From the NCBI GenBank assembly GCA_021166835.1, contig JAJPEN010000040.1, positions 1-50,079 of the forward strand: a stretch of 50,079 nt of DNA. Reading direction: 5' to 3'. The DNA comes from Burkholderiaceae bacterium. GTDB lineage: Bacteria > Pseudomonadota > Gammaproteobacteria > Burkholderiales > Burkholderiaceae. Shown here one piece after another: positions 1,453 to 28,315 of this stretch. Positions within the stretch are counted from its first letter, which is position 1. Each line of letters starts with the position of its first letter. The notes below the pieces were generated by a model that saw only the letters and a program-made list of their open reading frames with translations, was not told the DNA's origin and ran no database searches. Both the position numbers and the translations under genes were made by a program.

Positions 1453-4032
1453 TTACGCCGGGGCGTGCAGTGCGACGGACAGGCTGCGTGCGATGTCGCG
1501 TGCCACGAGCGGCTTGCCGAGGATCTCGACGACGCCGAGTTCCTTCGCACGTGCGGCAAGTGCGGGACTGACGTAGCCGCTCATCAGCACGATCGGGATC
1601 TCCGGCCGGATCGCCCGGATCTGCTGCGCCAGCTCCGAACCGGTCATCACGGGCATCGCCTCGTCGGAGAGCACGAGGTCGAAGCGATCCGGTTCGGCAC
1701 GGAAGCACTCGAGTGCCTGCGCGCTCGACTCGAAGCCCACGGGCTCGTAGCCGAGTCGTGCCAGCAGCTCTTCGCCCAGTCGCACGAGCGCCGTCTCGTC
1801 GTCGACGAGGAGCACGGTCTGGCCCTTGCCGAGCGCTGCCGGCTCTTCCTCGACCGCGACCGGCAGCACGGTCGATCCCTCGCGCGGCAGGTAGACCGTC
1901 ATCGTCGTGCCCTCGCCCGGTCGGCTCGCCACGGCGATGCCGCCGCCCAGGTCGGTGACGATCCCGTGCACCAGCGACAGCCCCAGCCCGGTGCCGACGC
2001 CGATGTCGCGCGTGGTGAAGAACGGATCGAAGATGCGCTCGAGCAGCCGCGGCGGCATGCCGACGCCGGTGTCGGCGACGACCAGGCGTACGTAGGCGCC
2101 GGCAGCGAGCTCGCTCGTCGTCACGCGTTCGGGCGTGTCGAAATCGACCGCGTCGACGCGCACCGAAAGCGCGCCCTTCGAACCGATCGCCTGCACCGCG
2201 TTCGCGCACAGGTTCATCACCACCTGGTGGATCTGCGTCGTGTCGCCCAGCACGGCAGCGTCGCCCGCATCGAGGCGGCGCTCGAGGCGTATGCCGCCGG
2301 GCATCGAGGCGGCGACCTGGTCGAGCACCTCGGCGACGACCGCCTGCACGTGCACCGGCTTGCGCTCGCCCATCCCGCTGCGACTGAAGGCGAGGATGCG
2401 CTCGACGAGCGACTTCGCGCGCATGCCTGCGCTGATCGTCGCGTCGATGTGCCGGCGCAGCCCGGTGCCCTCGGCCGCTTCCTTCTGCGCCATCTCTCCG
2501 TAGCCGAGGATCGCGGCGAGGATGTTGTTGAAGTCGTGCGCGATGCCGCCGGCGAGCGTTCCCATCGCCTCGAGCTTCTGCGCCTGGCGCAACTGCTGCT
2601 CGAGACGGTCGCGATCGGCCTCGGCGTTCTTGCGGTCGGTGACGTCCTCCATCGAGCCCGCCATCCGGTATGCGCGCCCGGCCGCGTCGCGCAGCGCGAT
2701 GCCGTGCTGGCGGTACCAGTGCCAGTGGCCGTCGGCGTGCCGCAGCCGGTATTCGACGTCGAAGTTCGGCGTGCGCCCCTGCAGGTGCGCGGCCAGGGCC
2801 GCGCGCGTGCGCGACACGTCGTCGGGGTGGTAGGTGGCCAGCGCGATCCAGTCTCGCCGCGGCCGGCGCGGCTCGCCGCCCGGCCCGAGCGAGAGCACCT
2901 GCTGCGCGCGCGGCGACAGGAACAGCATGTCCGACGGCAGGTCCCAGTCCCACAGTCCCTCGTTCGCGCCGTCGACGGCGAGCTGGTAGCGCTCCTCGGA
3001 CTCGCGCAGCGCCTGCTCGCTCTGGCGCAGCGCCTCCTGCGTGCGCTTGCGTTCGGAGATGTCCACCGTGGCGCCGGCAACCCGCTGCGCCCGGCCCTGC
3101 CCATCGCGGAAGCACTGCCCGCGCGTCTGCACCCAACGGTATGCGCCCGTGCTGCGATCGAACACGCGGTACTCGGCGTCGATGCGCGGCGTGCGGCCCG
3201 CCAGGTGCTCGTCGACCGCGTCGACGAGCAGCCGCCGGTCGTCGGGGTGCAGCGGAACGGCGCTGAGCCAATCGCGACCCTTCGTCGGCAGGCTCTCCGG
3301 CGTGAGCCCGACCATCGACGCGAGGTTCTTCGAAGCGAACACCTCGTCGCTGGCCACGTCCCAGACCCAATGCGCGACGTTCATTCCGATCATCGCGATC
3401 GCATAGCGCTCCTCCGACTGGCGCAACGCCTGCTCGGCGCGCTTGCGCGCGTCGATGTCGCTGATCGACCCGGCGATGCGCAGCGGCCGGCCGTCGTCAT
3501 CGCGGACGCACAGCCCGCGCACGTGGATCCATCGCATCTCGCCGCCGGGATGCACTATCCGGTACTCGCCTTCGAAGGCCGGCGTGCGCCCGGCCAGATG
3601 CGCTTCGAGCGCCTCTTTGCGGCGGACTGCATCCTCGGGATGCATGCGCACCCGGCGAAACACCTCCTCGTTAGCCTGCACTTCATCACTGTCGGCCGTG
3701 CCGAGCAGTTCGCGGGCGCGTGCCGACAGGTAGATCCGCTGCGTGCGGAAGTCCCAATCCCAAATGCCGTCGTCGGAACCCGCGACGGCGAGCTCGAAGC
3801 GCTGGCGCGACGCCTCGAGCGCGTCGCGTGCGGCGCGAAGTTGCAGCAGCTGGTGCAGCAGCAGCCACAGCAGCAGTCCGGCGAAGGCCGCCAGCGCCGC
3901 GCTGCGGCGAATCTCGGCCGGGCCCATGGCCGTCCAGACCATCGACGCGAGGAACAACACGCCGACCACGCCGATCGCACGGCGCAGCCATGGTTTGGGG
4001 GTGAAGGCGTGCAGCGACTCGCCGGTGTTCAT
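1453..4032 (-). CDS. hybrid PAS-domain sensor histidine kinase with C-terminal receiver
   Basis: 859 residues. Two N-terminal membrane helices (about 17-37 and 45-63) precede three PAS/PAC repeats (about 75-200, 205-330, 342-470). A HisKA domain carries the phospho-acceptor H499 (GGIAHDFNN). The HATPase domain has an N-box (N607), D654-TGVGM and GTGLGLSLV. A receiver domain at 738-855 has D744/D745, acceptor D790 and K840. It should autophosphorylate in response to an unknown signal and pass phosphate to its own receiver. The start is the ATG at 4032, which overlaps the stop of the upstream receiver gene as ATGA, so the two are translationally coupled. The open frame extends to 4455, but that stretch is a shadow of the receiver gene. 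Confidence 0.9.
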   Translation of the reverse strand: MNTGESLHAFTPKPWLRRAIGVVGVLFLASMVWTAMGPAEIRRSAALAAFAGLLLWLLLHQLLQLRAARDALEASRQRFELAVAGSDDGIWDWDFRTQRIYLSARARELLGTADSDEVQANEEVFRRVRMHPEDAVRRKEALEAHLAGRTPAFEGEYRIVHPGGEMRWIHVRGLCVRDDDGRPLRIAGSISDIDARKRAEQALRQSEERYAIAMIGMNVAHWVWDVASDEVFASKNLASMVGLTPESLPTKGRDWLSAVPLHPDDRRLLVDAVDEHLAGRTPRIDAEYRVFDRSTGAYRWVQTRGQCFRDGQGRAQRVAGATVDISERKRTQEALRQSEQALRESEERYQLAVDGANEGLWDWDLPSDMLFLSPRAQQVLSLGPGGEPRRPRRDWIALATYHPDDVSRTRAALAAHLQGRTPNFDVEYRLRHADGHWHWYRQHGIALRDAAGRAYRMAGSMEDVTDRKNAEADRDRLEQQLRQAQKLEAMGTLAGGIAHDFNNILAAILGYGEMAQKEAAEGTGLRRHIDATISAGMRAKSLVERILAFSRSGMGERKPVHVQAVVAEVLDQVAASMPGGIRLERRLDAGDAAVLGDTTQIHQVVMNLCANAVQAIGSKGALSVRVDAVDFDTPERVTTSELAAGAYVRLVVADTGVGMPPRLLERIFDPFFTTRDIGVGTGLGLSLVHGIVTDLGGGIAVASRPGEGTTMTVYLPREGSTVLPVAVEEEPAALGKGQTVLLVDDETALVRLGEELLARLGYEPVGFESSAQALECFRAEPDRFDLVLSDEAMPVMTGSELAQQIRAIRPEIPIVLMSGYVSPALAARAKELGVVEILGKPLVARDIARSLSVALHAPA

Positions 4033-4394
4033 GAGACGACGCGCAGCAGCGGACGCAACGTGTCGAGCAGCGCTTCGCGCGAGACCGGCTTGGGCAGCAC
4101 CGCTGCGACGCCCAGTTGCCGCGCGCAGCAGCCGTCGCGATCGACGTTGGCGAAGAACGCCGAAGACAGGGCCACCACCGGCCGACCGTCGTGCACTGCC
4201 ATCAGCGACCGCATCCGCTCGCAGCCGCCCTCGCGCGGGAAGGCGACGTCGACCAGGACGACGTCGCAGCGCGCGTGCACGTCGTCCTGCGCTTCGATCC
4301 CGGCGGCCGACAGCCACTCGGCGAGAAGGGCGAACAGGACCGGGTCTGCGCCGACGATCAACACACGGGGGCGTTCGCTCGCTCGAAGATTCAT
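4029..4394 (-). CDS. stand-alone receiver-domain protein
   Basis: 121 residues, a single CheY-like receiver fold. The predicted phospho-acceptor is D49 (VVLVDVAF) and the conserved lysine is K102 (VLPKPVS). The N-terminal acidic pair that binds Mg2+ is reduced to one residue (VGADP, D17), so phosphorylation may be weak or altered. It has no output domain. It is coupled by an ATGA overlap to the downstream hybrid kinase, which suggests it is a phosphorelay partner or a competitor of the kinase receiver. It is divergent from the OmpR-type gene across about 160 bases. Confidence 0.75.
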   Translation of the reverse strand: MNLRASERPRVLIVGADPVLFALLAEWLSAAGIEAQDDVHARCDVVLVDVAFPREGGCERMRSLMAVHDGRPVVALSSAFFANVDRDGCCARQLGVAAVLPKPVSREALLDTLRPLLRVVS

Positions 4395-4554
4395 TCCTCG
4401 ATCCGCTTTGAATCCGATGCCATTCAGCCCCGGCCGTCTTGCGGCCGCATTGCAAAGCGATCCCGCCAGATTACGTCTGAAACAGTCCGGAAGAGGCTGT
4501 AATGCGACCGACTTTCGTTGTAGGCTTTCCTATTCGGACGGAGGCGAAGCGCAG
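4395..4554. promoter_or_regulatory. divergent promoter region between two-component genes
   Basis: 160 bases between the minus-strand receiver/kinase pair and the plus-strand OmpR-type regulator. The sequence is less GC-rich than the flanking genes, as expected for promoters. I could not define -35/-10 boxes or an operator with confidence. A GGAGG ribosome-binding site for the OmpR-type gene lies at 4540-4544. Confidence 0.4.
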
Positions 4555-15465: not shown

Positions 15466-16434
15466 TCAGCCGTCGCGCACCACCTCCCGCAGGAACTGCG
15501 TCCACTCGCGCGCGAAGCGTTCGATCGAGAAGCGCGCGAGCGCATCGGCGCGCGCCGCCTCGCCCCAGCGTCGCGCCAGTTCCCGATCGTCGATCAGCGT
15601 TCGCATCACGTCGACCAGCGCGTCGACGTTCGTGTCGGCATAGCCGTTCACGCCGTTGCGGATCACCGTCGGCATCTCGGTGGTGGCGAGCGCGATCACC
15701 GGCACGCCGACAGTCATCGCCTCGAGCACCGACAGGCCCAGACTCGTATAGCGGATCGGATTGAAGAAGAAGCGAAAGCGCGAAACGAAGCCCGGCAGCT
15801 CGAGATTCGGAATCTCGCCGGCGCCGCCGATCGCTTCCGAACCCATGCCGACCAGCGTCAGCGCAACGCGCTCGCGCACCCGCTCGAACACATCGGCGCC
15901 CAGCCGACGCCCGCGCTCGCGCAGGTGGTTGACGACGACGATCCCTTCGTCGCGGTCGCCGCGATAGCGAGCGTCGTCGGGCACCAGAACGCCGTGCTCG
16001 ATGACGCGCGTGCGCGCATCGCCGTTGTCCCACATCAGCGCGTTGAACGAGGTCACGTGCACGATGTGCGCGTCGCTGTCGGCCGCCGGGTGGCGCGTGG
16101 CCGTCGGATGCTGCTGCGGCGGGTCGTGCTCGAGATACACGGCGGGCAGTGCGCGCTGCGCCTCGCTCAGCCGGTGCAGACGATCCTCATCCCAGTGACG
16201 GCGCGACTGGTACAGCACGCAGTCGAAGCGTCGCTGCGCCACCTCTTCGGCGGCGACCTCATGCACGTTCGGCCCCCACGGCAGCCTGCCCACGCGTCCG
16301 GCGTGTCCGGGCGGATGGCCGGGCAGCGTGACGAGATGGAAGTCGTGCGCCGCCTGGCTCAGGTAGTACAGATAGTTGCCGTGCACGTGCCAGGTGAGCA
16401 CCTGCAGGCGCGAGTCGTCGCGCGGCGTGGCCAT
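15466..16434 (-). CDS. glycosyltransferase, GT4/GT-B type
   Basis: 322 residues from the ATG at 16434; the frame is open far upstream, but that stretch is antisense or shadow to the GT9 gene. The protein has a GT-B shape: an N-terminal acceptor half, then a C-terminal half with the donor-site pattern (YTSLGLSVLEAMTVGVPVIALATTEMP and NGVNGYADTNVDALVD). The catalytic glutamate pair is represented by the single E of SVLEAM. It should transfer a sugar from a nucleotide donor to a cell-surface glycan. It is the last gene of the minus-strand glycan operon, 11 bases after the GT9 stop. Confidence 0.75.
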   Translation of the reverse strand: MATPRDDSRLQVLTWHVHGNYLYYLSQAAHDFHLVTLPGHPPGHAGRVGRLPWGPNVHEVAAEEVAQRRFDCVLYQSRRHWDEDRLHRLSEAQRALPAVYLEHDPPQQHPTATRHPAADSDAHIVHVTSFNALMWDNGDARTRVIEHGVLVPDDARYRGDRDEGIVVVNHLRERGRRLGADVFERVRERVALTLVGMGSEAIGGAGEIPNLELPGFVSRFRFFFNPIRYTSLGLSVLEAMTVGVPVIALATTEMPTVIRNGVNGYADTNVDALVDVMRTLIDDRELARRWGEAARADALARFSIERFAREWTQFLREVVRDG

Positions 16435-16445
16435 CGCGATGCCGC

Positions 16446-17555
16446 TCAGGCGCCGACCGACACGAGTGCCGGCGACGGCTGTTGCGCGTCGACCGTCAGC
16501 TGGTGCAGCGCAAGCTCGAACATCGCATCGACATCGATCGCCGACGCGCACGGATGCCCGGCACGCGGACACGAGAAATGCGCGCACGGGCGGCAATCCA
16601 CGTCGACGGCGAGCATCGGATGCATCCGCCGATCGAGGGGGCGCCATCGTCGGATCTCGCTGCCGCTGGCAACGACGACGCTGCGCGTGCCCACGCCGAC
16701 CGCCACGTGCGACACGCCGGTGTCGTTGCAGACGAGCAGCCGGCAGCTCTCGATCGCGGCGCCCAGTTCGCCGAGTCCGGTGGCGCCGCTCAGATCGGCC
16801 GCGCGCGTTCGCATCGAGCGGCGCATCGACGCGGCCAGCGCGCTTTCGTCGGCGCTGCCGGTGATCGCGATCTGCCAGCCGCGCAACGCCAGTCGATCGG
16901 CCAGTTCGGCGAAACGCTCCACCGGCCAGCGCCTCGACGGGAAACGCGCTCCCGGATGCACGAGCACCAGACGCTGCGGATCGAGCGAATGCCGCTGTGC
17001 GATGCGTCGCCATGCGCGACGCTCGTCCTCGCGCAGCGGGAACTCCAGCTCGCGCCCGCGCCGCGCGATGCCGAGGTGATCGACGACGCGCAGCAAGCGC
17101 TCGATCTCCGATTCCTCTTCGGGCCAGCGCAGGAAATCGTCGCCCGCGGCGCCAAGGCCGTGCGCCGGCGCGAAGCCGCAGCTGCGTTTCGCGCCCATCA
17201 TCCGCACGATGCCGTTGGTGCGCTCGCCGCTGCCGTGCAGTTGCAGCGCCAGGTCGAAACTCCGTGCACGCGCCTGGGCGAAGAAGCCCGGCAGCCGAGA
17301 GCCTGCCGGCGGCTGCTCGGGCAGGCCGACCGCGCCGGGAAAGCCCAGCCAGTCGTCGACGTAGCGGTCGAAGCGCCGCGCGAAGGCTTCGGACGAAGGC
17401 AGTCCGACCAGCGTGACGTGCGCGCGCGGCCACGCGTGACGCAGCGCGCGCAACACCGGCACCGCGCAGAGCAGGTCGCCGAGCTGCAATGCGCGGAACA
17501 CCGCGATGCGCTGCGCGCGTTCGTGAATCATCGGTTCGATCGGCAAGGCTGCCAT
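16446..17555 (-). CDS. glycosyltransferase family 9 (heptosyltransferase-like), copy 1
   Basis: 369 residues from the ATG at 17555, with AAGGAG upstream. GT9 markers: the N-terminal ALQLGDLLCAVPVLRALR, LVHPGARFPSRRWP in the middle, and NDTGVSHVAVGVGT for donor binding. The C-terminus carries a cysteine cluster (CRPCAHFSCP...HPC) that may bind metal or form disulfides. GT9 enzymes usually add heptose to the lipopolysaccharide core on the cytoplasmic side. It follows a second GT9 gene after 17 bases, in the same direction. Confidence 0.85.
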   Translation of the reverse strand: MAALPIEPMIHERAQRIAVFRALQLGDLLCAVPVLRALRHAWPRAHVTLVGLPSSEAFARRFDRYVDDWLGFPGAVGLPEQPPAGSRLPGFFAQARARSFDLALQLHGSGERTNGIVRMMGAKRSCGFAPAHGLGAAGDDFLRWPEEESEIERLLRVVDHLGIARRGRELEFPLREDERRAWRRIAQRHSLDPQRLVLVHPGARFPSRRWPVERFAELADRLALRGWQIAITGSADESALAASMRRSMRTRAADLSGATGLGELGAAIESCRLLVCNDTGVSHVAVGVGTRSVVVASGSEIRRWRPLDRRMHPMLAVDVDCRPCAHFSCPRAGHPCASAIDVDAMFELALHQLTVDAQQPSPALVSVGA

Positions 17556-17572: not shown

Positions 17573-18697
17573 TCAGTGCTCCTGGTCGAGGAATCGTTCT
17601 TCGAGAGCGCGCATCGAACGCCGCGCCGAGAGCAGCGCGAGCGCGGCGTCCACCGCTTCGCGCGGCTCCACGCCCGCGAGGCACGCCTGCGTGCCGTTGG
17701 GGCACACGCTCTTGTAGCAGTTGCGGCACGGCACGTCGCGATTCAGCACGCGCGCGGGTACGCGCCACGGACCGTGCTGCGGGTTCGTCAATGCGTAGAG
17801 GTCGACCACCGGCGTGCCGAGCGCGGCGGCGACGTGCACGGGGCCGGTGTTGTTCGCGATCAGCAGGTCGGCGCCTTCGAGCAGCGCGCCCAGTTCGCCG
17901 AGCGACAGCCGTCCCGAGAGGTCGTGCACGCGCGCGGGCCTGTCCGCCTGCGCGACGATGCCGTCGACCAGCGCGCATTCGCCGGCGTCGCCGCTGAGCA
18001 CGATGCAGCGGTGCTGCCGCTGCGCAAGCTCGCGCAGCGCCTGCGCGAAATGCGCAGCCGGCCATCGACGCGACGGCGCGCTCGCCCCCGGATGCACGAC
18101 GATGCGCGCCGCTGCGGGATCGACACCGGCCTCGCGCAGCTTCGTCACGAGCGTCATTCGATCGGCCTGCACCACGCGGAACGACAGTCGAAGATCGGCC
18201 GGGCGCGGCGCGAAGCCGGCGACCAGGTCCAGTTGCCGATCGACCTCGTGGCGCAGCTGCTGCGCCGGTTCGGTTTCCGGCAGCCAGTCGGTGAGCAGCA
18301 GGTACGGATTCTCCCGGCAGTGCGCGAGCCGCAGCGGGATGCCCGCCATCCGGCATACGAGCGCCGGCGCGATCGGACTCTGACTGTAGGCGCTGAAGAT
18401 CACCGCCGCGTCGAAACGATGCGCGGCGAGAACGTCGACGAGCGCACGGTCCGCGTCGGTACCCGACTCGTGGGTGCGCGCGTTCTTCACCCACGGCGCC
18501 TCGTAGCCGATCGTCGCGTCGATCTCGGGCACGTGCGCGGCCACGCGCACGCCCGACGAAGAGCCGAGCAGCGTGACGTGGCGCGACGGCTTCGCCGCGC
18601 GGATCGCGCGTATCGCCGGCGTCGTCATCAGCACGTCGCCCATGTTGTCGAGCCGCACGCACAGCACGCGTTCGGCCTCGCGCCACGCCTCGTTCAT
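17573..18697 (-). CDS. glycosyltransferase family 9 (heptosyltransferase-like), copy 2
   Basis: 374 residues from the ATG at 18697, which overlaps the stop of the phosphatase gene as ATGA. Family markers: VRLDNMGDVLMTTPAIRAIR at the N-terminus, IVVHPGASAPSRRWP, and NNTGPVHVAAALGTPVV. A C-terminal cysteine group (CRNCYKSVCP) resembles that of copy 1 and of other GT9 proteins. With the GmhB-like phosphatase it points to heptose-containing glycan assembly. The two GT9 copies are clearly diverged, so they probably add successive residues. Confidence 0.88.
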   Translation of the reverse strand: MNEAWREAERVLCVRLDNMGDVLMTTPAIRAIRAAKPSRHVTLLGSSSGVRVAAHVPEIDATIGYEAPWVKNARTHESGTDADRALVDVLAAHRFDAAVIFSAYSQSPIAPALVCRMAGIPLRLAHCRENPYLLLTDWLPETEPAQQLRHEVDRQLDLVAGFAPRPADLRLSFRVVQADRMTLVTKLREAGVDPAAARIVVHPGASAPSRRWPAAHFAQALRELAQRQHRCIVLSGDAGECALVDGIVAQADRPARVHDLSGRLSLGELGALLEGADLLIANNTGPVHVAAALGTPVVDLYALTNPQHGPWRVPARVLNRDVPCRNCYKSVCPNGTQACLAGVEPREAVDAALALLSARRSMRALEERFLDQEH

Positions 18698-19308
18698 GCC
18701 GCCACCGGTGCGCCGTTCGATGCGCTCGCCGCCTCGCTCGGCGCACTCGCCGCCTCGATCAGCGCGGCGGCTTCGTTCAGATCGCGCACGAGGTGATCGG
18801 GCCGGCGAAAGGGCCCGTCCAGCCACTCGGTCTCGTTGCCGTTGCACACGAGCACCGAGCGGCATCCGGCGCGCTTGCCCGCCTCGACGTCGTCGAGGAT
18901 GTCGCCGATCATCCACGAGCGCTGCAGATCGATCGCGTGCTCGTGCGCCGCACGATGCAGCAGCCCCGGCAGCGGCTTGCGGCAGTCGCAGGCGACGGCA
19001 TGCGCGGCGACGCTTCCCTGCGGATGATGTGTGCAGAAATAGGCAGCCGCCAGCGAGGCGCCGCACTGCGCGAACATCGCCGCCAGCTGCGCGCGCACGC
19101 CGTCCAGGCGCGACGCGTCGAAACGGCCGAGCGCGACTCCCGCCTGGTTGCTGACGACGATCAGCGGAACGCCCAGCGCGGCGAAGCGCGCGAGCGCCTG
19201 CGGCACGCCGTCGGCGAAGCGCATGCGCTGCGGATCGACGTTGAACGGAACGTCGACGAGCAAGGTCCCGTCCTTGTCGAGAAAGACCGCCGGCCGCGGC
19301 GCGCTCAC
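18694..19308 (-). CDS. gmhB: HAD-IIIA phosphatase, D-glycero-D-manno-heptose 1,7-bisphosphate 7-phosphatase type
   Basis: 204 residues from GTG 19308, which overlaps the SDR stop as GTGA. Motif I is FLDKDGTLL (D11 nucleophile, D13), motif II lies in VVSNQAGVALGR, and GDILDDVEAG supplies the Mg2+ acidic residues. The Zn-binding insert typical of GmhB is present (CTHHP...CDCRKP). It should remove the 7-phosphate in ADP-heptose synthesis. The usual partners gmhA and hldE are not in the window. The C-terminal tail is Ala/Glu-rich. The gene symbol is by family; a histidinol-phosphatase-like activity cannot be excluded. Confidence 0.8.
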   Translation of the reverse strand: MSAPRPAVFLDKDGTLLVDVPFNVDPQRMRFADGVPQALARFAALGVPLIVVSNQAGVALGRFDASRLDGVRAQLAAMFAQCGASLAAAYFCTHHPQGSVAAHAVACDCRKPLPGLLHRAAHEHAIDLQRSWMIGDILDDVEAGKRAGCRSVLVCNGNETEWLDGPFRRPDHLVRDLNEAAALIEAASAPSEAASASNGAPVAA

Positions 19309-20078
19309 GGCCACGAAGTCTCGCGCATCGGCAGGACCATCATCTCGGGGATGACGGTCTCGGCGGGCTGCTCCAGCACGAAGCGGATCGCGCGCGCGAC
19401 GTTGCGCGGATCCTGCAGCAGCGACGGATCGATGTCGGGAAAGCGGTCGAGCAGGAACGGCGTGCGCATGCCGCCGGCGACGATCGCGCAGACCTTGATC
19501 CCCTGCGGCCGCAACTCCGCGTGCAGCGCGTGCGACAGACCGAGCACGCCCCATTTGGTCGCGTGATAAGCGCTCGCGTTCGGCCACGCGCGCTTCGACG
19601 CGGTGGATGCGATGTTGACGATCGCGCCGCCGCGCTCGCGCATCGCCGCGCAGGCTCGCCGCGCGACGAGAAACACGCCGTTGAGGTTGGTGCGCACTAT
19701 GCGTTCCCAATCGGCGGCCGAAAGCTCCGCGATCGGCGCCGTGACGTCGATCGCCGCGCTGTTGACCACGGCGTCGACCGCGCCGAAGCGATCGATCGCG
19801 GTGTCGAACAGGCGTCGCACCTGCTCTTCGTCGCCCACGTCCACCGCCGCGGCGAGCGCCTCGACGCCGCTCTCCTTCAGCCGGGATGCGCAGCGCTGCG
19901 CCCGCTCCGCTGCCACGTCGGCGACGACCACGCGCGCTCCCGCCGCGCCCAGTTCGGCGCAGGCCGCCGCACCGAGCCCGCTCGCGCCGCCGGTGACGAC
20001 GACCACGCGCTTCGCGAGGCTCTCGATGGGCTGCGCGGCCTGCGCGCCCGATTCATTTCCAGCCGACGGCTGCTGCAT
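19305..20078 (-). CDS. short-chain dehydrogenase/reductase
   Basis: 257 residues from the ATG at 20078. Classical SDR: Rossmann motif VTGGASGLG (about 29-36), NSAAID in place of NNAG, an active-site serine in the NIASTAS stretch, and Y171-x3-K175 (AYHATKWG). It should oxidise or reduce a sugar, alcohol or ketone with NAD(P). Its start lies 26 bases inside the upstream glycosyltransferase gene and its stop overlaps the phosphatase start, so it is firmly inside the glycan operon. A role in modifying a nucleotide-sugar or glycan precursor is an inference. Confidence 0.85.
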   Translation of the reverse strand: MQQPSAGNESGAQAAQPIESLAKRVVVVTGGASGLGAAACAELGAAGARVVVADVAAERAQRCASRLKESGVEALAAAVDVGDEEQVRRLFDTAIDRFGAVDAVVNSAAIDVTAPIAELSAADWERIVRTNLNGVFLVARRACAAMRERGGAIVNIASTASKRAWPNASAYHATKWGVLGLSHALHAELRPQGIKVCAIVAGGMRTPFLLDRFPDIDPSLLQDPRNVARAIRFVLEQPAETVIPEMMVLPMRETSWP

Positions 20079-21426
20079 CGTTGCTCCCCATTCTTGTTTC
20101 GGATCCGGATGCGACGCGCGCCGCACGCAAGGGCAGGCGCGCGACCGGCGACGGCGTCGCGCCCGTCCTGCCGGGCGAACGTACCGGCCTGCGCGCGTAC
20201 GAGGCGGCAGTGCGATAGACGTCGAGCAGCGCGCGCGCCACGCGTTCCCAGGTGTAGAGCTTTCTCGCGCGCGCCAGGCCTGCGCGCCCCATTCGTTGCG
20301 CGAGCGCCGGCTGCGCTTCCAGCTGCGCGAGACGTTCGGCCAGCGCGACCGGGTCGTTCGGCGGAACGAGGTAGCCGGTGCGGCCGTCGACGACCGTGTC
20401 CTGGATTCCGCCGACCGCGGCGCCGACCACCGGGCATCCGCAGGCCATCGCTTCGACCGGCGTGATGCCGAAGGGCTCGTACCACGGCGTGGTGACGAAG
20501 ACGTCGGCCGCGCTGTAGACGGTGCGCAGCCGGTCGCGGTCGCAACGACCGATGAAGTCGACGCGATCGGCAACGCCCTCGTCGTGCGCGATGCGAGCCA
20601 GGCGCTCCAGCTCCGGCGTGCGGTTCATCGTCGGATCGCTCGAATTGCCGCCGGCGATCACCAGCCGCGCATCGCGCCCGAAGCGGTTCTTCAGCACCGC
20701 GATCGAGCGGATCACGTTGTCGACGCCCTTGCGCGGCACCATCCGGCCGAGCTGCAGCACGGTGAATTCATCGTTCGGCCATTGCAGCTGCGCGCGCGCC
20801 GCCAGCCGGTCGATCGGCTGCAGTTCGGCGGGATCGAAGCCGCAGGGCACGATGTCGATGCGCGACGAGTCGGCGCCGTAGTGCTCGATCATGTCGCGCA
20901 AGTCCTGCGGACACTCGGCGACGATGCGATGCGACTCGCGCACGAGCTGGTCTTCGATGTCGAAGCGCGCGTCGGAGAAGCCGTCGTCGGCGCCCTGGTG
21001 CAGGCGGCGGACGCGTCCCAGCGCATGGAAGGTGGTGACGAGCGCCGTGCGAAAAGTGCGCGCGAAGCGCAGCCCGACCCAGCCCGACATGAAGAAGTTC
21101 GCGTGGACGATGTCGTAGCACAGCTTCTGCTCGCGCACGAAGGCGTGCATCGCCGCCGAGAAGGCCGGCATGTGCGCGAGCAGCTTCTCCTTGGGCAGCT
21201 CGGCCTGCGGACCGGCGCGCACGTGCACCACCCGCACGCCGGGCAGCCAGTCGACGACGCGCGCGAGCGCAGCATTGTCGCGGCGCGTGTAGACGTCGAC
21301 TTTCAACCCGAGGCGAGCGAGCTCGCGCGCGACGTTGGCGACGTAGATGTTCTGTCCGCCGGCATCCACGCCGCCTACCGCGCAAAGCGGTGAGGCGTGC
21401 TCGCTCACGATCGCGATGGTTCGCAT
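20053..21426 (-). CDS. glycosyltransferase family 4 (MshA/sucrose-phosphate-synthase-like)
   Basis: 457 residues. The N-terminus has the GGVDAGGQNIYVANVARELARLG pattern of MshA-type and sucrose-phosphate-synthase-type GT4 enzymes. The donor domain carries LQLGRMVPRKGVD, then TPWYEPFGITPVEAMACG with the EX7E catalytic pair, then VGGIQDTVVDGRTGYLV. The C-terminal 50 residues after the GT4 fold are basic and low-complexity. A purine-rich site (GAGAGAG) precedes the ATG. It is the first glycosyltransferase of the operon and overlaps the SDR gene. 206 bases separate it from the upstream gene, and I see nothing else in that gap. Confidence 0.85.
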   Translation of the reverse strand: MRTIAIVSEHASPLCAVGGVDAGGQNIYVANVARELARLGLKVDVYTRRDNAALARVVDWLPGVRVVHVRAGPQAELPKEKLLAHMPAFSAAMHAFVREQKLCYDIVHANFFMSGWVGLRFARTFRTALVTTFHALGRVRRLHQGADDGFSDARFDIEDQLVRESHRIVAECPQDLRDMIEHYGADSSRIDIVPCGFDPAELQPIDRLAARAQLQWPNDEFTVLQLGRMVPRKGVDNVIRSIAVLKNRFGRDARLVIAGGNSSDPTMNRTPELERLARIAHDEGVADRVDFIGRCDRDRLRTVYSAADVFVTTPWYEPFGITPVEAMACGCPVVGAAVGGIQDTVVDGRTGYLVPPNDPVALAERLAQLEAQPALAQRMGRAGLARARKLYTWERVARALLDVYRTAASYARRPVRSPGRTGATPSPVARLPLRAARVASGSETRMGSNDAAAVGWK

Positions 21427-21632: not shown

Positions 21633-22199
21633 TCAGCGGGCGACATCGCTCGTTGCGTCAGCAGGGCCCGGACGCGGACCGACGAAAGGCTCGTGCTGCC
21701 TTGCAGCAACCTCCTTGACGAGCGCGCGCAAGGCAGCGGCAATCATCGTGGCGAAGGCTTCGTCGTACCACGGATGAGCGCCGCTCACTCCGACGACGAT
21801 GCCGTCGAGGCACACGGCGCCCCACACCGCCACGTCGCCCACGCGCAGCCGATGCGGCTGCAGCGCCTGCAGCCGGTGCGTGTCGACGCCGTGCAGCCAC
21901 GCCTGCCGCGCCTTCGCCCGCGCGAACATGCCGTAGTCGGCGTCCCATCGCGCACGATCGCCGATCCGGTGTTCCGCGAGGATCGCCTCCTCGAAAGTGC
22001 AATCGCCCGGTGCGAGCGCGGGGTCGACGACGACGATCGAGAGGAAGCCACCGCCGCTCACCTCGGGCCGGGCGACCGCCGCCTCGATCGCCGGAAGCGC
22101 CATCTCGATCGCCCGCTGCGCGCAGGCGCGATCGGCATACCAGCTGCCGCGCACGCCGAGTTCGCTGCGCAGAACGGCGGGGGTGCCGGTCGTCGTCAT
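21633..22199 (-). CDS. GlcG/HbpS-like domain protein (tentative)
   Basis: 188 residues from the ATG at 22199, which overlaps the stop of the ABC-receiver fusion as ATGA, so the two are translationally coupled. The pattern of a central helix (MFARAKARQAWLHG) followed by VWGAVCLDGIVVGVSGAHP and YDEAFATMIAAAL resembles the GlcG/HbpS fold, whose members bind haem or small molecules and can sense redox state. Sequence support is partial, so the family call is weak. The C-terminus is polar and probably disordered. No signal peptide is seen, so it is probably cytoplasmic. Coupling to the fusion suggests a role as its partner (inference). Confidence 0.55.
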   Translation of the reverse strand: MTTTGTPAVLRSELGVRGSWYADRACAQRAIEMALPAIEAAVARPEVSGGGFLSIVVVDPALAPGDCTFEEAILAEHRIGDRARWDADYGMFARAKARQAWLHGVDTHRLQALQPHRLRVGDVAVWGAVCLDGIVVGVSGAHPWYDEAFATMIAAALRALVKEVAARQHEPFVGPRPGPADATSDVAR

Positions 22200-25033
22200 C
22201 GCTTGTCTCCTGTAGAAGCGGAAGGTTCGATGCGCGCTTCCTCGTCGGCCGGCGAACGATCGCCCGCCGGCGCCTGCGCGCGCTTCGGCGCCGGCACGAG
22301 CCGCCGGATCGTCGCGACCAGTTCGTCGACCTGCACGGGCTTGGTCAGGTGCACCTGGAAGCCCGCCATCAACGCGCGCAGCCGGTCCTCGGGCTTCGCC
22401 ATTCCGGTCAGCGCGATCGCCGGCGTACGACGATCGAGACCGATGCCCAGGCGCGCCTCCAGCTGGCGCAGGCCGCGCACGACGTCGTGGCCGTCCTCGT
22501 CGCCCAATGCGATGTCGCACAGCACGATGTCGGGCCAGCGCGCGGGCGCGAGCGAAGACAGCCATTCGAGCGCGTCGAAGCCGTGCTCGAAGGTGACGAC
22601 CTCGGCACCCTCGTGCTCGAGCGTGAGCTGCAGCATCTCACGCACGTCGGCGACGTCGTCGATCGCGACGATGCGCAGTCCGCCCAGGCGTCGGGCGGCA
22701 ACCGGCGCCGACTCCTTCGCCGCCTCCTTCGCCGCCTCTTTCGCGACGGGCAGCGAGACGCCGCCCGCATCGATCACGCGCAGCGGAAGCTCGATGACGT
22801 ACCGCGTTCCGTGCCCGGGCCCGGGTGGCTCGATCGTGAAGCGTCCGCCGTGGCGCTCGAACACGCTGCGCAACTGCAGCGGATCGGCCGACGGCACGCC
22901 ATCGGGCGGCGGCGCGCGCAGTTCGCCCGCCGAATGCGAACCGTCGGTGAGGACCAGCCGCGCCGAGCCTTCGTGCCGCGTGATCGCCCACTCGATGCGC
23001 CCGCCGTCGGGCGTCGCGTTCAATGCGTGCAGCGTCAGGTCCCACAAGGCCTGCGAGAGCACGCTCGGATCGCCGGTGATGCGCGCCTGCGTCAGCTCGA
23101 TGTTGGTGAAGATCTGGATCGAGCGCTCGTCGACGATGCCGCGCACTCCGTCGAGCACGCTGGCGAGCACGACACCGAGGTTGACCGGCTGGCGGGCCAG
23201 GCGCCGCTCGGTGCGCTCGACGTCCAGCTGCTGCTGCTGCAGGTTCCACAACTGCGCATACAGGCCGCGTCGCCCGAGCAGCTCGTCGTGCCTGCCGCGC
23301 TCGACGATGCGGCCCCGATCGAGCACGATGATCTCGTCGGCGCCGACGATCGTCGACAGCCGATGCGCGATGATCAGCGTCGTGCGATCGCGCGCGATGC
23401 GGTCGATCTCGCTCTGGATTGCGCGCTCGGCGCGCGTGTCGAGCGCGGAGGTCGCCTCGTCGAAAATCAGCATCGGCGGGTCCTTCAGCAGCGCGCGAGC
23501 GATCGCGAGCCGCTGGCGTTCGCCGCCCGAGAGCATCAGTCCGCGCTCGCCCACCGGCGTGTCGTACTGCTGCGGCAGCGACATGATCAGCTCGTGCAGC
23601 TGCGCGGCCTTCGCCGCCTCGATCACGTCGGCCTGCGATGCGCCCGCGCGCCCGTAGGCGATGTTGTAGGCGATCGTGTCGTTGAACAGCACCGTGTCCT
23701 GCGGCACCACGCCGATCGCCCCGCGCAGGCTGGGCAACCCGATGCGGCGGATGTCGGTGTCGTCGACCAGGATGCGCCCGCCGTCGACCTCGTACATGCG
23801 CATCAGCAGCCGCGCGAGCGTCGACTTCCCGGAACCGCTGCCGCCCACCACCGCCGCCGTGCGCCCCGGCTCGATGACGAAACTCACCCCCTGCAGGATC
23901 GGCCGGCCCGGCTCGTAGGAGAACTCGACGTCGTCGAAGGCCACGCGCGGACGATTGCCTTCGAGCAGCGCGCGGTGCGGCGGGTCTTCGTCCGGCTCCA
24001 CCGGATTGCGCAACAGCACCGACAGCCGGTCGACGTTGACCATTGCATCGCGCGTTTCGCGGAACAGGAAGCCGAGCGCGTTCAGCGGCATGCAGATCTG
24101 CAGCACGTAGGCATTGACGAGCACGAGGTCGCCCACCGTCATCGCGCCCTTCATCGTGTACTCGCCGGCGAGCAGCATGATCGCCGCCACGCCGGCGGCG
24201 ATGATCGCGCCCTGCCCCAGGTGCAGGCGCGACAGCGCGTACTGGCTCTGCACGCTCAGCTCGGACCACTCGCCCATCAACGCGGCATAGCGCTGCGCCT
24301 CGTGGCGCTCGCGCACGTTCACCTTCACCGCCTCGTAGTTCAACAGGCTGTCGAGCAGGCTGCCTTCGGCGCGCGCACCGGTCGCGTTCACGCGCGCCTC
24401 GAACTCGACGCGCCGCTTCGTCATCACGAAGGTGTAGAAGGCGTAGACGCCGAAGGTGGCGAGGATGATCGCAGTGAACCACAGGCTGTAGCCGCCGATC
24501 ATCACGATCAGCACCCCGCCGATCTCGACCAGCGTGGGCAGCAGCGTGAACAGCGCCGCGCCGAGCAGGAAGCCGACGGCGGCGGTGCCGCGGTTCACGT
24601 CGTGCAGCAGCGCCCCCGAGTTGCGGCTCGCGTGGAAGGCCGGACCGACGCGCAGCAGATGCAGCAGCGAGCGTTCGGCGGTGCCCGAGATCGAATCGAG
24701 CGTCACCCGCACGAAGCTCATGTCGCGCAGCTCGACGAAGAGCGTGCTCGAGAAGCGCAGCAGGCTGTAGCCGATCAGCAGGAACACCGGCACGGCGACG
24801 AGCGGCGCGATGGCGGGCGGATTGCCGGCCAGCGCCGCGTTGCGCGCGGCTTCGGCGATCGTGAACTCGTCGACGATGCGCTTGAGCACCAGCGGCACCG
24901 CCACGCTGGCGACTTTAGCGAGGACGAGGAACAGCGCGGCGAGCAGCGCGGCGCGCCGATGCCGGCGCAGCACCGTCCACAGCGTGTCGATGATCAGGTT
25001 GTTGCGCCCGAAAGCAGGCGCTGCGGCGGTCAT
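22196..25033 (-). CDS. ABC exporter (Atm1/HMT-type) fused to a degenerate histidine-kinase ATPase domain and a receiver domain
   Basis: 945 residues from the ATG at 25033. Residues 1-335 are an ABC exporter membrane domain of the Atm1/HMT type (LLHDVNRGTAAVGFLL). The nucleotide-binding domain (about 360-595) is intact: Walker A 397-405 with K403, Q445, signature LSGGERQ 501-507, Walker B D525/E526 and H557. Residues 610-750 resemble a HATPase_c domain: an N-box-like ALWDLTLHALNATPDGG and the ending HGTRYVIELP. The N-box Asn and the DxGxG box are degraded, and there is no phospho-acceptor histidine. Residues 786-910 are a complete receiver: D792/D793, acceptor D840, T876, K898. The frame is continuous with no stop. 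It heads the glycan operon. Confidence 0.85.
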   Translation of the reverse strand: MTAAAPAFGRNNLIIDTLWTVLRRHRRAALLAALFLVLAKVASVAVPLVLKRIVDEFTIAEAARNAALAGNPPAIAPLVAVPVFLLIGYSLLRFSSTLFVELRDMSFVRVTLDSISGTAERSLLHLLRVGPAFHASRNSGALLHDVNRGTAAVGFLLGAALFTLLPTLVEIGGVLIVMIGGYSLWFTAIILATFGVYAFYTFVMTKRRVEFEARVNATGARAEGSLLDSLLNYEAVKVNVRERHEAQRYAALMGEWSELSVQSQYALSRLHLGQGAIIAAGVAAIMLLAGEYTMKGAMTVGDLVLVNAYVLQICMPLNALGFLFRETRDAMVNVDRLSVLLRNPVEPDEDPPHRALLEGNRPRVAFDDVEFSYEPGRPILQGVSFVIEPGRTAAVVGGSGSGKSTLARLLMRMYEVDGGRILVDDTDIRRIGLPSLRGAIGVVPQDTVLFNDTIAYNIAYGRAGASQADVIEAAKAAQLHELIMSLPQQYDTPVGERGLMLSGGERQRLAIARALLKDPPMLIFDEATSALDTRAERAIQSEIDRIARDRTTLIIAHRLSTIVGADEIIVLDRGRIVERGRHDELLGRRGLYAQLWNLQQQQLDVERTERRLARQPVNLGVVLASVLDGVRGIVDERSIQIFTNIELTQARITGDPSVLSQALWDLTLHALNATPDGGRIEWAITRHEGSARLVLTDGSHSAGELRAPPPDGVPSADPLQLRSVFERHGGRFTIEPPGPGHGTRYVIELPLRVIDAGGVSLPVAKEAAKEAAKESAPVAARRLGGLRIVAIDDVADVREMLQLTLEHEGAEVVTFEHGFDALEWLSSLAPARWPDIVLCDIALGDEDGHDVVRGLRQLEARLGIGLDRRTPAIALTGMAKPEDRLRALMAGFQVHLTKPVQVDELVATIRRLVPAPKRAQAPAGDRSPADEEARIEPSASTGDKR

Positions 25034-25279: not shown

Positions 25280-25849
25280 CTACTTCGCCCGGCCGTACTT
25301 CGCGATCAGCCGCGCCTTGCCCAGCGCATTCGCGTTGACCATGAAGCCGACGAAGGAGGCGCTGGCGCCGGTCGGGATGTCGAGCTTGTCGACCTTCAGC
25401 GCATACACGGTGAAGACGTAGCGATGCGGCTTGTCGCCGGCCGGCGGGCACGGACCGCCCCAGCCCGGCACGCCGAAATCGGTGGTCTGCTGCGCAGCGC
25501 CCTGCGGCAGGTTCTTGCCGTCCACCGACCCCGCGCCGTCGGGCAACGACGTCGTGTCGGCGGGCAGGTTGTAGACGACCCAGTGCCACCAGCCGGCACC
25601 GCCGGTGGGCGCATCGGGGTCGTGGACCATCAGCGCGAAGCTCTTCGTTCCGTTCGGGGCGTCCTTCCAGCTGAGCGCCGGAGAGATGTTGTCGCCCTTG
25701 CAGCCGAAACCGTTGTAGACGTTCTTCTCGGGAATCGTCGCGTTCGGTTTCAGCTCGGGACTGGACAGCTCGAAGGCAGCGGCACTGCCGACGCTCGAGA
25801 GCACGAGCGCGGCGCAGCCGGCGGCGAAGGCGGCGGCAGTCGGGCGCAT
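25280..25849 (-). CDS. YbhB/YbcL-type PEBP (Raf-kinase-inhibitor-like) secreted protein
   Basis: 189 residues from the ATG at 25849; the open frame runs to 25960, but this ATG starts a clear signal peptide (about 1-25, ending SAAAFEL). The phosphatidylethanolamine-binding-protein fold is shown by ISPALSWKDAP, MVHDPDAPTGGAGWWHWVVYNLP and HRYVFTVYALKVDKLD. Bacterial members are periplasmic and their ligands are largely unknown. It is transcribed toward the ABC fusion gene with a 246-base gap in which I see no gene. It is divergent from the molybdenum hydroxylase gene. Confidence 0.88.
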   Translation of the reverse strand: MRPTAAAFAAGCAALVLSSVGSAAAFELSSPELKPNATIPEKNVYNGFGCKGDNISPALSWKDAPNGTKSFALMVHDPDAPTGGAGWWHWVVYNLPADTTSLPDGAGSVDGKNLPQGAAQQTTDFGVPGWGGPCPPAGDKPHRYVFTVYALKVDKLDIPTGASASFVGFMVNANALGKARLIAKYGRAK

Positions 25850-25996
25850 GGCTTTGTTGTCGTTCGATGGGCTCGGGGAAGGCAATCGTCTTCCGATTCG
25901 GTTTCCCGCGCAACCGTGGGGTTGCGGCGCCCGACGGCGAGCTCGCGTCGGCAGTAGCATCGGTCGACCGATCGCGCTTCGCCGGAGGAAACGACA

Positions 25997-28315
25997 GTGA
26001 GCTCAGCCCCCTACGGGCGCTATGGCAGCGGCCAGGCCGTACGACGCCTGGAGGACTACACGCTGGTCACCGGGCGCGGCGCCTTCGCCGACGACTTCGA
26101 CGCGCCCGGCCAGGCGCATCTGTGCCTGCTGCGCTCGCCGCACGCGCACGCGCGCATCGTCTCGATCGACGCCGAAGCGGCCCGGCGCATGCCGGGCGTC
26201 GTCGCCGTGTTCATCGGCGAGGACCTCGTCGCCGCCGGCGTCACGCCCTTCCCTGGTCCTCCGTTCCAACGCCCGGATGGCTCGCCGGCCGCGTCGCCGC
26301 CGCGACACGCGCTCGCCGCCGAAGGCGTGCGCTTCGTCGGCGAAGCGGTCGCCGCGATCGTCGCCGAGACCACGGCGATCGCTGAAGAGGCGCGCGACGC
26401 GATCCTCGTCGACTACGACCCGTTGCCGGCGGTCGTCAACGCGCAGCAGGCGCTCGCGCCCGACGCGCCGCTGGTCTTCGACGGCGCGCCGGGCAACGTC
26501 GCCGCGATGACGCGCTACGGCGACCGGGCCGCGGCCGACGCCGCCTTCGCCTCGGCCGCGCACGTCGTCGAGCAGGAGATCGTCAACCAGAGGCTGGCCC
26601 CTTCGCCGCTCGAACCGCGCACCGTGCTCGCGATGCCCGATCGCGACAGCGGCCGCCTGACGCTTCGAATGAGCACGCAGATGCCGGGCGGCGCTCGCGA
26701 TTCGCTCGCTGCGCTGCTCGGCCGACCGATCGAAAGCATCCGCGTATTGGCCGGCGACGTCGGCGGCGGTTTCGGCATGAAGACGGGGCTGTATCCGGAG
26801 GACGCTGTCGTCGCCTGGTGTGCGCAGGAGTTGCAGCGCCCGGTCAAGTGGCGCGCCGAGCGCAGCGACGAGTTCCTCGGCGCCGTACACGGCCGCGACC
26901 TGCACAGTCGCGCCGCGCTCGCGCTCGACGCCGACGGGCGCATCCTCGCGCTGCGCATCCGCTCGGAAGCGAACGTCGGCGCCTACGCCACGCCCACCGG
27001 CGTCGCCATCCAGCTGCTGGTCGGACCGTGGGTGCAGACCAGCGTCTACGACATCGCGACGATCGACTTCGAGTTCCGCGCGGTGCTGACCAACACGACG
27101 CCCACCGGCGCCTATCGCGGCGCGGGCCGGCCCGAAGCGATCTACCTGATCGAGCGGCTGATCGACGCCGCGGCGTATCGGCTGTCGCTCGATCCGGTGG
27201 AACTGCGTCGCCGCAACCTGATCGGGCCGCAGCGCATGCCCTATCGCAACGCGATGGGCCAGGTCTACGACAGCGGTCACTTCGAGTCGATGCTCGACCA
27301 GGCGCTGGCGCTGGCCGATGCGAGCGGCTTCGACGCTCGGCTCGCGCAATCGAAGGCGCGCGGCCGGCTGCGCGGGCGCGGCATCGTCACCTTCCTCGAG
27401 TGGACCGGCGGCAACGCACTCGAAGAGCGCGTCACGATCGACGTGACGCCCGACGGCATCATCGAGATCGCATCCGCTACGCAGGCGATGGGCCAGGGCA
27501 TCGCGACCTCGTATGCGCAGCTCGCCGTCGACGTCTTCCAGGTGCCGATCGAACGCATCCGCATCGTGCAGGGCGACACCGATCGGGGTGCCGGCTTCGG
27601 CAGCGCCGCGTCCCGGTCGCTGTTCACCGCCGGCTCGTCGTTGCACGTCGCTTCCACCCAGACCGTGCAGAAGGCGCAGGAACTGGCCGCCGATCACTTC
27701 GAGACGTCCGTCGACGACGTCGAATACCGGGAAGGAATGTTTCGCATCGTCGGCACCGATCGTGCGATCGGGCTGTTCGAACTGGCCGCGCTCGAACCCG
27801 AGAAGCGCATCCATGTCGACTCGACGGCGGCCGTCGCCGGGGCGAGCTGGCCGAACGGATGCCACGTCTGCGAAGCGGAAGTCGACCCCGAGACCGGCGA
27901 GGTGCATCTGGTCTCGTATTTCTCGATGAACGACGTCGGGAGCGTGGTCAATCCAATGATCGTTCGCGGGCAGCTCGAAGGCGGCGCCGCACAGGGTATC
28001 GGCCAGGCGCTGTGCGAGCACGTCGTCTACGACGCCGACAGCGCACAGCTGCTCTCCGCCAGCTTCCTCGACTATGCGTTGCCGCGCGCGCTCACCGTGC
28101 CCACGTTCCGCATGGAGATGGATACCTCGGTGCCCTGCCGGACGAACCCTCTCGGCGTCAAGGGCGTCGGCGAACTGGGGACGATCGGCGCGGCTCCCTG
28201 CGTCGCCAACGCCGTTGTCGACGCGCTATGGCGCGTCGGCGCAGGAGAGCGCGCGCTGGCGCTGCAGATGCCGCTGACGCCGGAGCGCGTATGGAGCGCA
28301 TTGCAGGCCGGATAG
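25997..28315 (+). CDS. xanthine-dehydrogenase-family molybdopterin-binding large subunit
   Basis: 772 residues from GTG 25997, with GGAGGAA upstream. The N-terminal Ald_Xan_dh a/b hammerhead-type domain is followed by the molybdopterin-binding domain: GDVGGGFGMKTGLYPE, TGAYRGAGRPEA, ATQAMGQGIATSYAQ, and a C-terminal KGVGELG in which E726 is the likely catalytic base. The AYRGAGR sequence, not AYRCSFR, indicates a form II-type hydroxylase rather than true CO dehydrogenase. The enzyme would hydroxylate an aldehyde or heteroaromatic ring and needs an FAD subunit and a 2Fe-2S subunit, neither of which is next to it. The substrate is unknown. Confidence 0.88.
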   Translation: MSSAPYGRYGSGQAVRRLEDYTLVTGRGAFADDFDAPGQAHLCLLRSPHAHARIVSIDAEAARRMPGVVAVFIGEDLVAAGVTPFPGPPFQRPDGSPAASPPRHALAAEGVRFVGEAVAAIVAETTAIAEEARDAILVDYDPLPAVVNAQQALAPDAPLVFDGAPGNVAAMTRYGDRAAADAAFASAAHVVEQEIVNQRLAPSPLEPRTVLAMPDRDSGRLTLRMSTQMPGGARDSLAALLGRPIESIRVLAGDVGGGFGMKTGLYPEDAVVAWCAQELQRPVKWRAERSDEFLGAVHGRDLHSRAALALDADGRILALRIRSEANVGAYATPTGVAIQLLVGPWVQTSVYDIATIDFEFRAVLTNTTPTGAYRGAGRPEAIYLIERLIDAAAYRLSLDPVELRRRNLIGPQRMPYRNAMGQVYDSGHFESMLDQALALADASGFDARLAQSKARGRLRGRGIVTFLEWTGGNALEERVTIDVTPDGIIEIASATQAMGQGIATSYAQLAVDVFQVPIERIRIVQGDTDRGAGFGSAASRSLFTAGSSLHVASTQTVQKAQELAADHFETSVDDVEYREGMFRIVGTDRAIGLFELAALEPEKRIHVDSTAAVAGASWPNGCHVCEAEVDPETGEVHLVSYFSMNDVGSVVNPMIVRGQLEGGAAQGIGQALCEHVVYDADSAQLLSASFLDYALPRALTVPTFRMEMDTSVPCRTNPLGVKGVGELGTIGAAPCVANAVVDALWRVGAGERALALQMPLTPERVWSALQAG

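What the first reader, a model, noticed from the sequence alone, without database searches (positions are those of the whole stretch)
22196..25033. ABC exporter fused to a kinase-like ATPase domain and a complete receiver domain
One continuous frame joins an Atm1/HMT-type half-exporter with all nucleotide-binding motifs, a degenerate HATPase_c-like domain (N-box Asn and DxGxG lost, no phospho-acceptor His), and a receiver with D792/D793, D840, T876 and K898 intact. I know of no described system in which a transporter carries its own phospho-acceptor. It may be an exporter whose activity is switched by phosphorylation, with the kinase-like part as a nucleotide-sensing relay. A GlcG/HbpS-like protein is coupled by ATGA.
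Basis: partly seen in the sequence, partly recalled or inferred. Interest (0 to 1): 0.88.

Follow-up and report, generated by a model that had tools for sequence, protein, structure and literature searches.

The report
ABC exporter with built-in receiver tail
A family of bacterial membrane pumps, encoded beside sugar-assembly genes, carries at its end a broken kinase-like domain and an intact phosphate-accepting switch, which suggests a pump that is turned up or down by phosphorylation.

Summary
One frame (22196-25033, minus strand, 945 aa) joins an Atm1/ABCB7-fold half-exporter, a HATPase_c (CA) domain with a broken ATP site and no HisKA, and a complete receiver (REC). It is a family: 126 fusion proteins, this one and some fragments included, and 78 genome loci, mostly Burkholderiales and Rhodocyclales by title. 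None of the 126 keeps more than 3 of 5 ATP-site residues (45 of 45 hybrid kinases keep 5); 119 keep the REC site. On a quick rooted tree the fusion looks ancestral, with repeated losses. New here: the gene lies in a conserved, apparently heptose-glycan cluster. 55 of 78 fusion loci hold at least 3 of 10 cluster genes, against 0 of 17 ordinary Atm1 paralogue loci. Three of six glutathione-contact positions are changed. Best reading: a cluster-dedicated exporter with a phospho-switch tail (dead CA as adaptor, REC as input). The kinase, the effect on transport and the substrate are inferred. A nucleotide relay is not supported, and HbpS homology of the next gene is weak.

The parts
22196..25033 (-). 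Fusion gene, 945 aa: Atm1-type ABC half-exporter + pseudo-CA + receiver
24083..24943 (-). Transmembrane domain (residues 31-317); contacts R208, Q274 (and R325 beyond it) kept, positions 212 and 271 (and 319) differ from glutathione-type Atm1
23249..23956 (-). Nucleotide-binding domain (residues 360-595); Walker A, Q445, SGGE, D525-E526 and H557 invariant in 68 of 68 aligned fusions
23195..23263 (-). Predicted continuous helix 591-613 running from the NBD end into the first CA strand, where a kinase would have its DHp
   Evidence: AlphaFold2 models
22784..23191 (-). Pseudo-CA (HATPase_c fold, residues 615-750): N-box, G1 and G2 degenerate; DP at 717-718 in most fusions
22676..22783 (-). Linker 751-786, partly of low pLDDT; dN/dS above both CA and REC in 7 of 10 lineages measured
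22298..22675 (-). Receiver domain (residues 787-912), D840 phospho-acceptor at 22514-22516
21633..22199 (-). Small protein, distantly HbpS-like (weak), overlaps the fusion stop by ATGA
20053..21426 (-). GT4 glycosyltransferase
19305..20078 (-). Short-chain dehydrogenase
18694..19317 (-). HAD phosphatase (start not settled)
17573..18697 (-). GT9 (heptosyltransferase) family protein a
16446..17555 (-). GT9 (heptosyltransferase) family protein b
15466..16434 (-). Second GT4-type glycosyltransferase

Best explanation
It is a half-size (presumably homodimeric) ABC exporter of an Atm1-derived subfamily, dedicated to an apparently heptose-glycan biosynthetic cluster. Its C-terminal tail was taken from a hybrid histidine kinase and cut down to a dead CA domain plus a live receiver. 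A trans-acting phospho-donor (a hybrid or orphan histidine kinase, an HPt, or acetyl phosphate) phosphorylates D840. The receiver then changes its contact with the dead CA, which is held on a continuous helix (591-613) directly after the NBD, and so favours or hinders NBD dimerisation and export. Shown here: the domain layout, the broken ATP site and missing H-box, conservation of the receiver site, gene linkage and changed pocket. Inferred: that D840 is phosphorylated, the donor, the sign of the effect, and the substrate.
For: Receiver site (D/E, D/E, D, T/S, K) intact in 119 of 126 fusions, D840 in 126 of 126; CA keeps at most 3 of 5 ATP-site residues in each of the 126, against 5 of 5 in 45 of 45 hybrid kinases. 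REC and CA under purifying selection in all 11 lineages compared (dN/dS 0.06-0.30 and 0.06-0.39; linker 0.15-0.94 in the 10 measurable). NBD and CA are joined by one predicted helix. CA without REC in 8 proteins (four of them on contigs over 26 kb), so CA may serve the exporter by itself; among the 126 aligned fusions none has REC without the CA region. In a quick tree the kinases fall on one side of a branch with full support, apart from P0267, an ABC protein that I had mislabelled, which is consistent with one origin of the tail. Linkage: 55 of 78 fusion loci with at least 3 of 10 cluster genes, ordinary Atm1 paralogues 0 of 17 with any, unfused members of the same subfamily 21 of 22 near cluster genes. 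Pocket: positions of ABCB7 R319, N378 and F426 are Q/E (68/68), H (67/68) and A/T/S (68/68), against R, N, F in 14 of 14 paralogues (contacts from PMC13376393, passages).
Against: The module is dispensable in evolution: on the rooted tree (6 CA-only and 12 unfused rows) REC loss needs about five changes and loss of the whole module about four, while unfused exporters stay in the same cluster. CA and REC are less constrained than the ABC part in most lineages (NBD dN/dS 0.04-0.23). No constant partner kinase: a hybrid-kinase-like frame lies within 10 kb in 18 of 76 loci, which I judge near chance for kinase-rich genomes (no control run). 23 of 78 fusion loci have fewer than 3 of the 10 cluster genes, six of them none; some contigs end early. 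Seven of 126 fusions have a changed receiver site. Pfam does not recognise the CA of two REC-less members. The paralogue loci come from other genomes than the fusion loci. No dimer was modelled.
Confidence: 0.5

Rival explanations
1. Transporter as sensor: the transport cycle sets whether REC can be phosphorylated or dephosphorylated, so the tail reports flux (or drains phosphate) to a separate two-component system that controls the cluster.
For: Transporter-linked signalling is known: CrbS and CbrA carry SLC5 domains on histidine kinases. DivL shows that a pseudokinase can work by binding a phospho-receiver (PMC9430884, passages), and DivL is the second Foldseek match.
Against: No output domain, no HisKA, and no constant neighbouring kinase (18 of 76 loci). 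In CrbS/CbrA signalling was reported not to depend on transport (abstract passage).
Confidence: 0.2
2. The tail is a scaffold: dead CA and REC dock the glycosyltransferases or a lipid-linked product to the pump, and phosphorylation plays no part.
For: CA kept without REC in 8 proteins; DP in place of the kinases' GL at the G2 box (D 116 and P 100 of 126); exporters lie beside glycosyltransferases.
Against: The five REC catalytic residues would not need to stay intact, yet do in 119 of 126.
Confidence: 0.15
3. Vestigial tail in decay on an ordinary exporter.
For: Repeated loss of REC and of the module; unfused members live in the same cluster; CA and REC less constrained than the ABC part in most lineages.
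Against: dN/dS well below 1 in REC and CA in each of 11 lineages and D840 in 126 of 126.
Confidence: 0.1
4. Plain Atm1/AtmA-type exporter of glutathione or glutathione-metal complexes with the tail as stress regulator; the glycan genes are incidental.
For: Atm1 fold at about 40 percent identity; R208, Q274, R325 kept in 68 of 68.
Against: Three of six glutathione contacts changed throughout the subfamily; gene linkage against 0 of 17 for ordinary paralogues; 15 of 17 fusion genomes also hold a second Atm1-type paralogue with a shorter frame.
Confidence: 0.15
5. One reading: CA binds nucleotide and passes phosphate to REC.
For: D697, the G1 Asp, is kept in 111 of 126; single other motif residues survive in some (second N-box Asn 19, G1 Gly 20 and 15 of 126).
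Against: No fusion keeps the full set, the first G2 Gly is absent in all 124 counted, and no H-box is seen in 126.
Confidence: 0.03

Closest known systems
Atm1/ABCB7/NaAtm1 half-exporters
   Same: Best fold match (NaAtm1 4mrn, about 40 percent identity); among the best sequence matches; NBD motifs complete
   Different: Three of six glutathione contacts replaced; C-terminal CA-REC; sits in a glycan cluster
Hybrid histidine kinases (PAS/GAF-HisKA-HATPase-REC)
   Same: CA followed by REC, with detectable sequence homology; ShkA is the top Foldseek match
   Different: No HisKA or H-box, broken ATP site, an exporter in place of sensor domains
CrbS (SLC5-STAC-kinase-REC)
   Same: Transporter-type domain and REC in one chain (PMC5715377, passages)
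   Different: CrbS has DHp and CA and signals to CrbR; its transporter domain is of the sodium-symporter family, not an ATP-driven exporter
DivL pseudo-histidine kinase
   Same: Kinase-fold CA, second Foldseek match; DivL works with the receiver protein DivK (PMC9430884, passages)
   Different: DivL is no transporter; its receiver partner is a separate protein

Membership tests
ABC B-type exporter, Atm1/ABCB7 group | ABC_membrane + ABC_tran with complete NBD motifs | tested here: met
ABC B-type exporter, Atm1/ABCB7 group | Full glutathione contact set (ABCB7 R315, R319, N378, Q381, F426, R432) | tested here: not met
   three of six changed in 67 or 68 of 68 fusions; 14 of 14 ordinary paralogues keep all six
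Hybrid histidine kinase | HisKA/DHp with phospho-acceptor His | tested here: not met
   no HisKA in the Pfam scan of P0001 up to E 1; H-box pattern in 0 of 126 fusions against 43 of 45 kinases
Hybrid histidine kinase | ATP-binding CA | tested here: not met
   by motif only: at most 3 of 5 residues in each of 126; binding itself not tested
Response-regulator receiver (PF00072) | DD, D, T/S, K site and fold | tested here: met
SLC5-STAC kinases (CrbS) | SLC5 transporter + STAC + DHp | tested here: not met
   the transporter part is ABC and there is no HisKA; STAC was not looked for on its own
HbpS/GlcG (PF03928), downstream gene | Pfam score above cut-off | tested here: inconclusive
   13.8 to 19.8 bits against a cut-off of 25 in 3 of 5 sequences, no match in 2; some of the relatives were partial pieces
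Phospho-regulated transporter | Phosphorylation of D840 changes transport | not testable with these tools
   needs biochemistry

The most novel reading that the evidence does not exclude
A new class of signalling output: the receiver's effector is an ATP-driven export pump itself, gated post-translationally by a phospho-Asp switch through a dead kinase domain, and dedicated to exporting the product of a conserved glycan pathway.
Probability: 0.42. Interest if true: 0.86.

Novelty: new variant of a known kind. Interest (0 to 1): 0.7.

Why it matters
If right, two-component signalling acts directly on a pump, not on transcription, and the same subfamily offers natural controls: members with CA+REC, with CA alone, and with neither (the last in the same gene cluster). 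It also proposes an exporter for a widespread glycan-type cluster for which my paper searches listed no description, and shows an Atm1-type pocket re-shaped away from glutathione.

Tried and rejected
Assembly artefact or frameshift: rejected; the frame is open in the genomes of 17 fusion loci and in 77 of 78 fusion loci. One locus, L054, has an interrupted frame. Whole window genome: not held. HbpS-like protein as special partner of the CA-REC tail: rejected, since 11 of 22 unfused loci also have it. Constant partner kinase: not found (18 of 76). Zinc ABC paper PMC7912956 (passages): a different transporter. PexA paper PMC6424863 (passages): background on Atm1-type exporters only. Paper searches for the fusion or the cluster: searches found none; in the listings shown (20 of 99, 10 of 10, 20 of 37, 16 of 16, 10 of 16) no title or opening abstract describes either. 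I opened few of those papers, and only licensed PMC papers are searched. Searches looked for AtmA, HbpS and Atm1 residues. A wider fold comparison was filled by REC domains and said nothing about CA. Pocket comparison of fused against the first unfused set showed almost no difference, because those unfused proteins proved to be the same subfamily; the paralogue comparison replaced it. That comparison used 14 of 22 ordinary paralogue loci, those with a frame on the strand that my script read. The neighbourhood control used 17 loci of ordinary paralogues. In the first ABC tree I had put P0146, which has a receiver, among the CA-only rows; it is left out of the second. Rows dropped: P0030, P0033, P0044, P0045 by my motif filter; P0267 and P0317 were first counted as kinases and moved; the trees were not rebuilt. 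Only the best 80 of 98 loci and the best 120 hits per protein search were seen. Species frequency was not settled: 12 of 300 genomes matched the tail at E 1e-25, many probably kinases; 7 of 399 genomes show a frame of 900 aa or more at the exporter match, in a cut listing and not checked one by one. Whether the shorter REC-less proteins P0125, P0127, P0154 and P0166, on contigs of 3-5 kb, are complete could not be checked.
Full report

It is a real family. A database search with residues 600-945 lists 72 further proteins with ABC and receiver domains (P0002-P0073, five of them fragments without ABC_membrane) before plain hybrid kinases begin; a second search from P0053 adds more, including one from Solimonas, a gammaproteobacterium by recalled taxonomy. 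In genome contigs 98 stretches encode a relative; of the 80 kept, 78 are fusion loci (mostly Burkholderiales and Rhodocyclales by record title) and two, L070 and L080, have frames without the exporter. One of the 78, L054, has an interrupted frame. In the genomes of 17 of these loci the long frame is open, and 15 of 17 also hold a second Atm1 paralogue at 46-51 percent identity with a shorter frame (607-812 aa).

The kinase part is dead by its motifs, the receiver is not. In 126 fusions, none keeps more than 3 of 5 ATP-site residues (two N-box Asn, G1 Asp and two Gly), against 5 of 5 in 45 of 45 hybrid kinases; where the kinases have GL at the G2 box most fusions have DP (D 116, P 100 of 126); an H-box pattern is found in none of the 126, against 43 of 45 kinases. 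D840 is kept in 126 of 126 and the five-residue receiver site in 119 of 126. In 11 lineages of two to six sequences dN/dS is 0.06-0.30 for REC and 0.06-0.39 for CA; the NBD is tighter (0.04-0.23); the linker between CA and REC is 0.15-0.94 in the ten lineages where it could be measured, above both CA and REC in seven of them.

Evolution. In a quick tree of CA-REC the kinases lie on one side of a fully supported branch and the fusions on the other, save P0267, an ABC protein that I had counted as a kinase. With ordinary Atm1 paralogues as outgroup, fused members lie on both sides of the subfamily's deep splits, so one early fusion and later losses is the simplest reading (quick tree, modest support). 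Eight proteins show the dead CA but no REC, four of them on contigs over 26 kb; Pfam does not recognise CA in the two that I scanned, but they align with it. A group with Noviherbaspirillum and Massilia names has neither.

Neighbourhood. In the window the fusion is followed on the same strand by a small, distantly HbpS-like gene (ATGA overlap), GT4, SDR, HAD phosphatase, two GT9 and another GT4. The same genes, often with a carbamoyltransferase, GT2, an epimerase and a PIG-L deacetylase, recur: carbamoyltransferase in 51 of 78 loci, HbpS-like 50, SDR 49, GT9a 49, GT9b 45, GT4a 44, HAD 40 (Pfam names); 7 of 78 have none of carbamoyltransferase, GT9a, GT4a or HbpS-like. With a set of ten genes, 55 of 78 fusion loci have three or more; 17 of 17 loci of ordinary Atm1 paralogues, from other genomes, have none. 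Unfused members of the same subfamily also lie in the cluster (21 of 22), with HbpS-like in 11 of 22. So the cluster belongs to the exporter subfamily, and the tail is an addition to it. Annotated plasmids of Paraburkholderia sprentiae and Burkholderia multivorans show many of the same genes; one GT9 is named waaF in the first. The window itself has no carbamoyltransferase match. That the product is a heptose glycan is an inference from the GT9 family name.

Pocket. ABCB7 binds glutathione through R315, R319, N378, Q381 and R432, and substrate through F426 (PMC13376393, passages). By the HMMER alignment (chain number plus 70, my count, letters agreeing at all six) these are positions 208, 212, 271, 274, 325 and 319 here. 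The fusions have R 68/68, Q or E 68/68, H 67/68, Q 68/68, R 68/68 and A/T/S 68/68; ordinary paralogues have the ABCB7 letters in 14 of 14. The substrate is therefore probably not the glutathione cargo of ordinary Atm1 (inference).

How it most likely works. An Atm1-derived pump dedicated to the cluster's product carries a tail in which the dead CA serves as adaptor between NBD and receiver; phosphorylation of D840 by a donor in trans shifts the NBD cycle. The anatomy, conservation and linkage are shown; phosphorylation, donor, direction and substrate are inferred. A hybrid-kinase-like frame lies within 10 kb in only 18 of 76 loci, so no partner can be named.

Known relatives. CrbS joins an SLC5 domain to a kinase and REC (PMC5715377, passages), so a transporter domain with its own REC is not unheard of; DivL is a working pseudokinase (PMC9430884, passages). 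An ATP-driven exporter ending in dead CA plus REC was not described in what my paper searches listed, which cover only licensed PMC papers and of which I saw titles and opening abstracts.

Noticed in passing
window 1453-4455 (-): A PAS-HisKA-HATPase-REC hybrid kinase frame (1000 aa from a TTG) lies about 18 kb from the fusion on the same strand; a possible but unproven phospho-donor.
   Followed up: partly
L082:3680-5266 (-): In the B. multivorans plasmid a PAS-HisKA-HATPase-REC kinase sits about 2 kb upstream of the fusion, annotated only as ATP-binding protein.
   Followed up: partly
L023, L032, L046, L073 and others, beside the fusion: PIG-L deacetylase is near 23 and a GT2 (b) near 30 of 78 fused loci, but PIG-L near only 1 of 22 unfused ones.
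   Followed up: no
window 25280-25867 (-): Phosphatidylethanolamine-binding-protein family gene about 250 bases upstream of the fusion on the same strand; in my clustering it recurs only in the close relatives L001-L003.
   Followed up: no
window 25997-28315 (+): Molybdopterin-binding subunit of the xanthine dehydrogenase/aldehyde oxidase type, divergent from the fusion.
   Followed up: no
L081:13026-18204: CheR-family methyltransferase and CheB genes next to the PIG-L end of the cluster in Paraburkholderia sprentiae.
   Followed up: no
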